From Asaia bogorensis NBRC 16594 (lineage in GTDB: Bacteria > Pseudomonadota > Alphaproteobacteria > Acetobacterales > Acetobacteraceae): a stretch of 64,000 nucleotides of DNA. Under the pieces are notes generated by a model. It made no database searches. It worked only from the letters and a program-made list of their open reading frames with translations, and was not told the DNA's origin. Every line of letters begins with the position of its first letter. Position 1 is the stretch's first letter. Positions 19,165 through 56,018 of this stretch are shown piece after piece. Made by a program: the position numbers and the translations under genes. The DNA is taken from positions 711,501-775,500 of the forward strand of contig NZ_AP014690.1 of assembly GCF_001547995.1 (NCBI RefSeq), in the 5' to 3' direction.

Positions 19165-19537
19165 CACCCGAAAGCCCGAACGACGACAGCTCAGGCAAAG
19201 CTGGCCTCGGGATTTGCCGTGTGGAATTCATATTGGTTTGAAAAGTGGGAGGGCTTCTGTTGCCCGGTGCCCTCCCGAACCGCGCTTATCGCTTATGCAG
19301 CGACAGCGAGCACCTTTGTGTTATCATTGGCACTTGTGATTTAGCCCGATAACGGCGGTACAATGCCGGGCAAAAGATAAGTCTTTACCACGCACGTCGA
19401 GCCTGTTTCGTCCCCTAACTTTCCGTCGGGCAAAGCCCTCGGGAAGGAATGGTGGAGACGCCGGGCACTGCCCCCGGGTCCGTAACGATTATTCCACTTA
19501 CCGTTTATCGCCATAGCCAAGGGCAAGCCCTCCGGCA
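19165..19537 (-). ncRNA. ssrA: Transfer-messenger RNA, circularly permuted two-piece form
   Basis: The tag reading frame is at 19293-19331 on the minus strand and encodes ANDNTKVLAVAA followed by TAA, a typical alphaproteobacterial tag. The acceptor piece comes first: a T-arm-like GGGGGCAGTGCCCGG and the 3' end GGCGTCTCCACCA, whose CCA is at 19450-19452. After a spacer of about 34 nt the coding piece starts at 19415 with GGGGACGAAACAGGCTCGAC, whose GGGGACG pairs with CGTCTCC of the acceptor. This order (acceptor then coding) is the permuted arrangement of alphaproteobacteria, matured into two RNAs. The outer ends are approximate. It rescues stalled ribosomes. Confidence 0.93.
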
Positions 19538-19543
19538 CCGATG

Positions 19544-19572
19544 CATATAGGGTGTTGCTGTGCGCCCGGCAA
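19544..19572 (-). promoter_or_regulatory. Sigma70-type promoter of ssrA
   Basis: On the minus strand TTGCCG (19567-19572) and TATATG (19544-19549) are separated by exactly 17 bases. Transcription would then start near 19537, just before the acceptor piece. Confidence 0.6.
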
Positions 19573-19747
19573 GGGGTGGTTTGCCGCCGCATTCCGCGCG
19601 TCACACCAAGCCGGTTGAATCGTGATGAACCATGAGTGCCCGTTTCCTGATGGCGCCTGATATGTAGGGGTGTCGGAAGCGGACAAATTGTCTCGCAAGG
19701 CGAAGTGCTGGTGTCTAAGCCGGTATTCCTGTGGTAAGCCTCGGCCT

Positions 19748-55186: not shown

Positions 55187-55372
55187 GGCCTGAAGGTGAA
55201 AATTGGGCACTTACATGTGTACGGGCTTCCCTTGTGCCAACTTGGGACGTGAGCAGCCGGAGCAGGAGAGCGCGACGCGGGTTTGGCCCGGGAATAGGGC
55301 TACAAGAGAGTCTGACCCGCAGAGGAGGCCGGGTAGGGGCTGTGCAAGGTCGGTCTTGTTGCGTGATTGCGA

Positions 55373-55681
55373 TGGTGTCCGCGGCGGGATTCGAACCCAC
55401 GGCCCCAGGATTCATACCACTTCGGCTTTCACCGCCGGCGCACAGAGCGCACCGTTCGTGGTCTGGACTGTCTCTTCACCATAGCCCGGACAACCGGACG
55501 ACAGGCGCTGCCCGTACAGTCTCTACACCTCCATGCTACCTTGCGGACGCATATTTGGCTCGGGATTGGCACGGCTAGACACCAGAGCGTTCCCCGAATT
55601 TGAGCAGATCCACCATGATGTTTCCAAGCATGGCGCCCAATTTTAGGAATCCTGTGCTCTATCCTGCTGAGCTACGCGGAC
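55373..55681 (-). tRNA. tRNA-Arg(CCU) interrupted by a group I intron
   Basis: The 5' exon (55645-55681) has the acceptor GTCCGCG, D arm GCTC...GAGC, anticodon stem CAGGA and loop start TTCCT. The 3' exon (55373-55412) has AATCCTG, variable loop GGGCC, T arm GTGGG-TTCGAAT-CCCGC, acceptor CGCGGAC and an encoded ACCA end. Joined, they make a normal cloverleaf with anticodon CCU. A 232-nt group I intron lies directly after U36. Without allowing for the intron, only half-tRNAs would be detected. Confidence 0.92.
55413..55644 (-). ncRNA. Group I intron (IC3-like) in tRNA-Arg(CCU)
   Basis: The intron is 232 nt. The preceding exon ends in U and the intron ends in G, as required. Core elements resemble those of the Azoarcus tRNA-Ile intron: CAAATTCGGGGAA (within 55590-55603), CCGAGCCAAA (55554-55563), GTGTAGAGACTGTACGGG (55511-55528) and AAGAGACAGTCC (55465-55476). 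GACTGT and ACAGTC of the last two form P7. There is no room for a homing endonuclease. Self-splicing is expected from the family but not shown; I did not resolve P1 fully. Confidence 0.9.
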
Positions 55682-56018
55682 CATCGTTTCCATTCTAGTT
55701 CTGCTCCGCGAAGCAGGCAAGAGGGCGGGTTTCAATTTTTTCTGTACCCTGTGATCGGTTGCAATACTCGCAAGTCATTCTAAGATTGCTTTTGTTAGTA
55801 AGTCCGTATGTGTGCGCGCATGGAGAAGATTAAACTCTTTTATGCTGGCATGTTGAAAGATTTACTTTAGTTCTTTCCCTAAGGGCACCAGCGGCAGTCA
55901 CGTTCTCGGCATATTCGTTTTCCTTCAACTACGCGCGATGCCGAGTGGAGAATACGTTTCGTAAAAAAACCGAGATAGGGATGTGATATAAGGCTCTGAG
56001 AAAAGAAAGCGTGAAGTA
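55682..56018. other. AT-rich gene-free region between the tRNA and the BTAD regulator
   Basis: This 337-bp region is clearly more AT-rich than the window. It must hold the tRNA promoter (minus strand) and the promoter of the regulator (plus strand). GATATAA near 55984-55990 may be a -10 element for the latter. I see no further gene or repeat. Confidence 0.35.

What the first reader, a model, noticed from the sequence alone, without database searches (positions are those of the whole stretch)
55373..55681. Group I intron splitting tRNA-Arg(CCU)
The two halves of a tRNA-Arg(CCU) lie 232 bp apart in the right order, and the insert has group I intron core elements with P7 pairing and the U/G splice-site bases. 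Introns at this position in tRNA-Arg(CCU) are known from Agrobacterium, and the core resembles the Azoarcus tRNA-Ile intron. Annotation pipelines could miss this tRNA. The only CCU-reading tRNA seen in the window would depend on splicing.
Basis: partly seen in the sequence, partly recalled or inferred. Interest (0 to 1): 0.75.

Follow-up and report, generated by a model that had tools for sequence, protein, structure and literature searches.

The report
Self-splicing intron inside an arginine tRNA
A small self-removing RNA segment interrupts what seems to be the only gene for one arginine tRNA in the flower bacterium Asaia bogorensis; it is real but was already noted when this genome was published, and its wider interest is that its relatives sit in several other tRNA genes, each with a guide that fits its own target.

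Summary
On the minus strand, tRNA-Arg(CCU) exons 55645-55681 and 55373-55412 flank a 232-nt group I intron (55413-55644) inserted after the anticodon. Rfam RF00028 matches at E = 6.7e-8, below its gathering score. Thirty related introns support the fold: 40 of 66 pairs change on both sides. The joined exons form a good tRNA, and no intact CCU tRNA was found elsewhere in the genome (tRNA-Arg(UCU) may also read AGG).

It is not new. [quoted passage not shown] The same family self-splices in Bartonella bacilliformis (PMC7717549).

The added value is comparative. Introns with the same core sit in tRNA-Leu(UAA), Leu(CAA), Thr(GGU), Thr(CGU), Lys(UUU), Lys(CUU) and Arg(UCU) of other alphaproteobacteria, and the three-base guide fits each target. 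This suggests movement between tRNA genes by reverse splicing, but the tree is too weak to count moves. In passing: a copy in tRNA-Leu(UAA) lies near aac(3)-IId; the split gene occurs in 635 of 5426 complete E. coli genomes.

The parts
55645..55681 (-). 5' exon of tRNA-Arg(CCU), positions 1-36, ends in the anticodon CCU
   Evidence: sequence; ARAGORN on joined exons; identical in 12 of 13 relatives compared
55413..55644 (-). group I intron, 232 nt, no homing endonuclease gene (too short to hold one)
   Evidence: RF00028 36.9 bits, E = 6.7e-8; covariation; boundaries from the tRNA and the aligned relatives
55373..55412 (-). 3' exon of tRNA-Arg(CCU), positions 37-73 plus encoded CCA
55636..55638 (-). 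internal guide GGG (intron nt 7-9): pairs with CCU of the anticodon, U-G at the splice site
   Evidence: sequence; guide fits target in 90 of 94 introns at a fixed distance from the P2 loop
55639..55641 (-). P10 strand AUU (intron nt 4-6), complementary to the first three bases AAU of the 3' exon
   Evidence: sequence; same bases precede the guide in 109 of 128 typed Arg introns
55611..55635 (-). P2 hairpin with GAAA loop
   Evidence: 8 of 9 pairs change on both sides; 83.7% of cells paired
55508..55607 (-). P3 (55607-55602 with 55513-55508) enclosing P4, P5, P6
   Evidence: P3: 4 of 6 pairs change on both sides, 99.4% paired; P4 and P6 never vary
55466..55521 (-). P7 (55521-55517 with 55470-55466), crossing P3, and P8 between
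   Evidence: P7 100% paired; outer pair G-C 23, A-U 6, U-A 1 of 30
55417..55461 (-). P9 region with a hairpin closed by a GAAA loop (55434-55423)
   Evidence: GAAA-hairpin pairs 100% paired, all 4 with changes on both sides
55692..55720 (-). promoter-like site TTGCCT-17-TAGAAT just upstream of the tRNA
   Evidence: 9 of 12 consensus bases; 1 found, 0.2 expected; not evidence of function

Best explanation
[quoted passage not shown] In the precursor, the anticodon CCU pairs with the guide GGG to form P1 (U-G at the splice site). An external guanosine bound in P7 attacks after the U, and the freed 5' exon then attacks after the last intron G, joining the exons into tRNA-Arg(CCU), which reads AGG. 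Shown: gene structure, conserved core, covariation, guide-target fit, absence of another CCU tRNA. Inferred: splicing in Asaia, from homology and from the shown self-splicing of the Bartonella relative.
For: RF00028 E = 6.7e-8; 40 of 66 pairs with two-sided changes; joined exons are tRNA-Arg(cct); none of 47 other tRNAs is CCU; exons identical in 12 of 13 relatives while the intron differs; none of the 131 genomes typed with the Arg intron is among the 73 of 297 family genomes holding the intact 15-base anticodon arm (123 of the 125 family genomes with the intron were in that search); gene with intron 238 of 297 aligned bases identical to Bartonella sp. A05; B. bacilliformis intron at this site splices in vivo and in vitro (PMC7717549); genome paper notes a tRNA(Arg) split by a group I intron-like sequence.
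Against: Score below Rfam's gathering cut-off. Whole-gene fold not clearly more stable than shuffles. No terminator-like site found within 55250-55800. No splicing data for Asaia seen here. The tRNA list is incomplete (47 plus this one, against 58 published; the missing ten are probably Ile(GAU) and Ala(UGC) of the five rRNA operons, an inference).
Confidence: 0.96

Rival explanations
1. The gene is a relic: the intron no longer splices and AGG is read by tRNA-Arg(UCU).
For: tRNA-Arg(tct) is present and could probably read AGG by wobble (general knowledge). AGG is rare: 48 of 13,877 codons in 32 long ORFs of the window.
Against: All 77 exon bases unchanged in 12 of 13 relatives, although the intron differs at many positions; core pairs kept by compensating changes; a promoter-like site in place.
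Confidence: 0.03
2. An insert of another kind (group II intron, enzyme-spliced tRNA intron, or a mobile element) that only resembles a group I intron.
For: Rfam score below the gathering cut-off; whole-gene fold energy not remarkable.
Against: P3-P9 covariation; full-length RF00028 alignment; guide and terminal G fit in relatives; the gathering scan with all Rfam families finds only tmRNA in the window.
Confidence: 0.01
3. For the wider family: the likeness of introns in different tRNAs reflects descent in place and transfer of whole tRNA genes, not movement of introns between tRNA genes.
For: Host sites cluster on the tree (21 changes, shuffled mean 53.4), and one clade per site is not rejected for R_CCU, L_UAA, T_GGU, K_UUU35 or all Lys (p-AU 0.31 to 0.49). 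Whole split tRNA genes travel on phages and plasmids.
Against: One core lineage is found at ten host/site classes, so at least nine changes of site are needed on any tree, and transfer of whole tRNA genes cannot change the site.
Confidence: 0.2

Closest known systems
Split tRNA(Arg) of Asaia bogorensis NBRC 16594 and other acetic acid bacteria (PMC4596401, Table 1 note)
   Different: The part read (section 3.1) gives no coordinates, anticodon, boundaries or structure.
BbgpI, group I intron of tRNA-Arg(CCU), Bartonella bacilliformis (PMC7717549, passages)
   Same: Same host tRNA; [quoted passage not shown] A relative, Bartonella sp. A05, is 238 of 297 aligned bases identical to the window gene.
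   Different: B. bacilliformis sequence itself not compared; peripheral loops differ.
Agrobacterium tRNA-Arg(CCU) intron and relatives (Paquin et al. 1999, known here by its title in a reference list only)
   Same: Same host tRNA; the title claims sporadic distribution, horizontal transmission and transposition.
   Different: Paper not held; sequence not compared.
Azoarcus tRNA-Ile(CAU) intron
   Same: By recall: small tRNA intron with a near-identical core and GAAA loops in P2 and P9.
   Different: Host tRNA and guide differ; not compared with its sequence here.
Cyanobacterial and plastid tRNA-Leu(UAA) intron
   Same: Some alphaproteobacterial relatives sit in tRNA-Leu(UAA) between 34 and 35, by recall the cyanobacterial position.
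   Different: Host tRNA of the window differs; sequences not compared.

Membership tests
Group I introns | Conserved core P3-P7 crossing P3-P8 with P4-P6 | tested here: met
   All helices present in the window; 93.9% of cells paired over 30 introns, P3, P5, P7, P8 with two-sided changes
Group I introns | U at the end of the 5' exon facing G of a guide in P1 | tested here: met
   CCU with GGG, U-G at the junction
Group I introns | G as last base of the intron | tested here: met
   intron ends GUAUG
Group I introns | Significant match to the family covariance model (RF00028) | tested here: met
   E = 6.7e-8 over the whole model; note 36.9 bits is below the gathering score of 50
Group I introns | Guanosine-dependent self-splicing | not testable with these tools
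   no wet experiment; shown for the B. bacilliformis relative (PMC7717549)
Subgroup IC3 | Subgroup-specific periphery (no P5abc, short P5) | tested here: inconclusive
   P5 carries one short hairpin; no subgroup model was run; PMC11835236 passage says P5(a-d) is absent from IC3
Alphaproteobacterial tRNA-Arg(CCU) intron family | Insertion in tRNA-Arg(CCU) directly after CCU | tested here: met
   same site in 128 loci and 142 of 201 typed loci
Alphaproteobacterial tRNA-Arg(CCU) intron family | Sequence kinship to a named member | tested here: met
   238 of 297 aligned bases identical to Bartonella sp. A05
tRNA-Arg(CCU) | Complete cloverleaf after removal of the insert, anticodon CCU | tested here: met
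   ARAGORN on the joined exons

The most novel reading that the evidence does not exclude
The Asaia intron belongs to one lineage of endonuclease-free tRNA introns that has moved repeatedly between tRNA genes of alphaproteobacteria: Arg(CCU), Arg(UCU), Leu(UAA), Leu(CAA), Thr(GGU), Thr(CGU), Lys(UUU) at two sites, Lys(CUU) and an odd Leu-like tRNA. Each time the three-base guide changed to fit the new anticodon loop. A guide of only three bases would make such jumps easy, which would make this a natural set for testing spread of group I introns by reverse splicing.
Probability: 0.5. Interest if true: 0.6.

Novelty: already known. Interest (0 to 1): 0.3.

Why it matters
For Asaia: a tRNA that common gene finders miss depends on a ribozyme, so anticodon counts made from such annotation are off by one. 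For the field: the relatives make the question of how endonuclease-free group I introns spread testable, because many tRNA sites, their intron-free versions and matching guides are available in related genomes.

Tried and rejected
Promoting the locus as new: rejected after finding the genome paper.

Automatic splice-site choice by tRNA fold alone was ambiguous (several candidates for most loci). The rules demand a fitting guide, so that call is no evidence for guide-target fit; one search tests this at fixed distances, with host labels already assigned, leaving out the 5 Leu-like loci and 1 without the loop motif.

Counting independent moves by tree: 140 columns for 100 rows leave 53 of 97 inner branches unresolved; AU tests reject no single-clade model.

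Donor of the plasmid tRNA-Leu segment: 299 family and 385 class genomes searched; best matches 86% identical and confined to the tRNA and intron, so no donor found.

Papers: no paper seen that describes this intron family in tRNA-Thr or tRNA-Lys, or the aac(3)-IId neighbour (search listings only; Paquin 1999 could not be read).

Full report
What is there. On the minus strand the window reads, 5' to 3': 37 bases of a tRNA ending in the anticodon CCU (55681-55645), 232 bases of insert (55644-55413), and 40 bases completing the tRNA including CCA (55412-55373). ARAGORN sees no tRNA in the window as it stands, only a permuted tmRNA, but types the joined exons as tRNA-Arg(cct).

What the insert is. 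cmscan with a permissive threshold aligns it to the full length of Rfam's group I intron model at 36.9 bits, E = 6.7e-8; in the whole 3,198,265-base genome it is the only such match at E <= 0.001. The score is below the gathering score of 50, so a default scan is silent. The minimum-energy fold of the whole split gene is not remarkable (z = -1.44). I therefore drew the group I core on the window intron and counted pairs on an alignment of 30 related introns: 93.9% of 1877 cells paired, 40 of 66 pairs with changes on both sides, 0 of 500 shuffles as good; sliding one strand by 1 to 3 columns drops pairing to at most 42.6%. P7, for example, has G-C, A-U and U-A at one pair. The alignment was made without the structure, but the structure was drawn on one of its rows, which favours it somewhat. 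The weakest helix of the set is a two-pair end of the P9.1 stem (55.6% paired).

How it works (inferred from general group I chemistry). The anticodon CCU pairs with guide bases GGG (55638-55636), leaving a U-G pair at the junction; the bases just before the guide (AUU) can pair with the start of the 3' exon (AAU). The intron ends in G. These are the features expected for two-step, guanosine-started splicing. Splicing was not tested here. [quoted passage not shown] The split gene of Bartonella sp. A05 is identical to the window gene in 238 of 297 aligned bases (record found).

Does the cell depend on it? RF00005 finds 47 tRNAs in the genome; ARAGORN types them all and none is CCU. The published count is 58; 47 plus this one leaves ten, probably the Ile and Ala tRNAs of the five rRNA operons, neither of which is in my list (inference). 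The intact anticodon arm AGGATTCCTAATCCT is absent from the genome. So this seems to be the only tRNA-Arg(CCU). But tRNA-Arg(UCU) is present and may read AGG too (general knowledge); AGG makes up 48 of 13,877 codons in 32 long ORFs of the window. 'Depends' is therefore fair for the tRNA, less certain for growth.

Is it alive? In 13 relatives compared, all 77 exon bases are the same in 12 and 75 in one, while introns share 167 to 221 identical columns of 232 to 259. All nine genomes of the genus searched have it. Nine of the ten named records share contig lengths with these relatives and are Asaia (eight) or Swaminathania (one); the tenth is Bartonella sp. A05.

Distribution. A covariance model of the core (built from the 30 introns, the window among them) matches 149 of 297 genomes of the family at E <= 0.001 and 49 of 387 of the class, six of those 49 being of the own family. 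The intact 15-base anticodon arm occurs in 73 of the same 297 family genomes. Of 125 family genomes with a typed Arg(CCU) intron, 123 were in that search and none has the intact arm. Seven genomes with the intact arm carry the intron in tRNA-Leu(UAA), and two more (G230, G302) in the Leu-like tRNA. Genomes with neither exact signal exist; the 15-mer is strict.

Other hosts. Host tRNAs of fetched introns were typed from the anticodon arm: of 215 loci, 201 typed: Arg(CCU) 142, Leu(UAA) 35, Thr(GGU) 8, Lys(UUU) between 35 and 36 6, Thr(CGU) 4, Lys(UUU) between 34 and 35 2, Lys(CUU) 2, Arg(UCU) 1, Leu(CAA) 1. Loci include repeats of the same place from different searches. ARAGORN agrees on a subset of 12 loci tested by hand: Leu 8, Thr 2, Lys 1, and one with a four-base anticodon reading. 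Eleven genomes hold introns at two different tRNAs. The guide fits the host: at 13 to 15 bases before the P2 loop GAAA the triplet pairs with the intron's own exon in 90 of 94 introns; with exons of other classes it does so in 13 of 564 (distance 13), 85 of 564 (distance 14) and 10 of 564 (distance 15) trials, wobble allowed. The four misses found the loop motif in the wrong place.

Moves or inheritance? On a tree of 100 introns (140 columns) the ten host classes need 21 changes; 9 is the least possible, and shuffled labels need 53.4 on average. So host is mostly inherited, with changes in between. AU tests do not reject one clade per class (p 0.31 to 0.49), and most branches are weakly supported. 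At least nine changes of site are required if all share one origin; more cannot be claimed. Movement by reverse splicing is the natural mechanism, since none of the typed introns (205-288 nt for the Arg class) has room for an ordinary endonuclease gene, but it is not shown.

Known or new? [quoted passage not shown] The finding is thus already known. Group I introns of tRNA-Arg(CCU) in alphaproteobacteria are a described family (PMC7717549), and a 1999 paper known here only by title claims their transposition. What I did not find described, within the searches listed under Tried and rejected, is the range of other tRNA hosts.

Noticed in passing
L380:3934-4231 (plasmid pCTX-M3, NC_004464.2); L391, L392: An apparently whole tRNA-Leu(UAA) gene split by an intron of this family lies about 650 bp from the resistance gene aac(3)-IId in the four records looked at. 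Matches to it: 1280 of 72,556 plasmid records, 1257 over at least 80% of it, and 635 of 5426 complete E. coli genomes, 81 places on chromosomes and 589 on plasmids. No feature is annotated there in the two RefSeq records read or the ten rows shown; the plasmid table holds no RNA genes. It hints that the resistance segment came from a bacterium with such a tRNA; no donor found.
   Followed up: partly
L089, L239, L225, L233, L237: Introns of one well-supported clade sit in a Leu-like tRNA with a long variable arm whose anticodon loop, after removal of the intron, seems to have an abnormal length; ARAGORN reads a four-base anticodon for L089. Host and splice site unresolved.
   Followed up: partly
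L286-L379; L382: 94 stretches of viral contigs carry the core pattern. Best automatic guesses of the host (not curated): Leu(UAA) 43, Arg(CCU) 5, Met(CAU) 3, Arg(UCU) 2, Lys(UUU) 1, rest unclear or untyped. Gordonia phage Daredevil has one in a tRNA-Lys(UUU) near its integrase gene. Phages may carry whole split tRNA genes.
   Followed up: partly
L282 (Bartonella sp. A05) and L190: The Bartonella intron groups with one from an Acetobacteraceae genome in a FastTree tree (0.97) but this is not resolved in the IQ-TREE tree; possible horizontal transfer.
   Followed up: no
L272: Genome G044 has a second, visibly decayed copy of a tRNA-Leu with intron besides an intact one (L086).
   Followed up: no
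window 19244-19576: Two-piece (permuted) alphaproteobacterial tmRNA, 235.3 bits; ordinary for the group.
   Followed up: no
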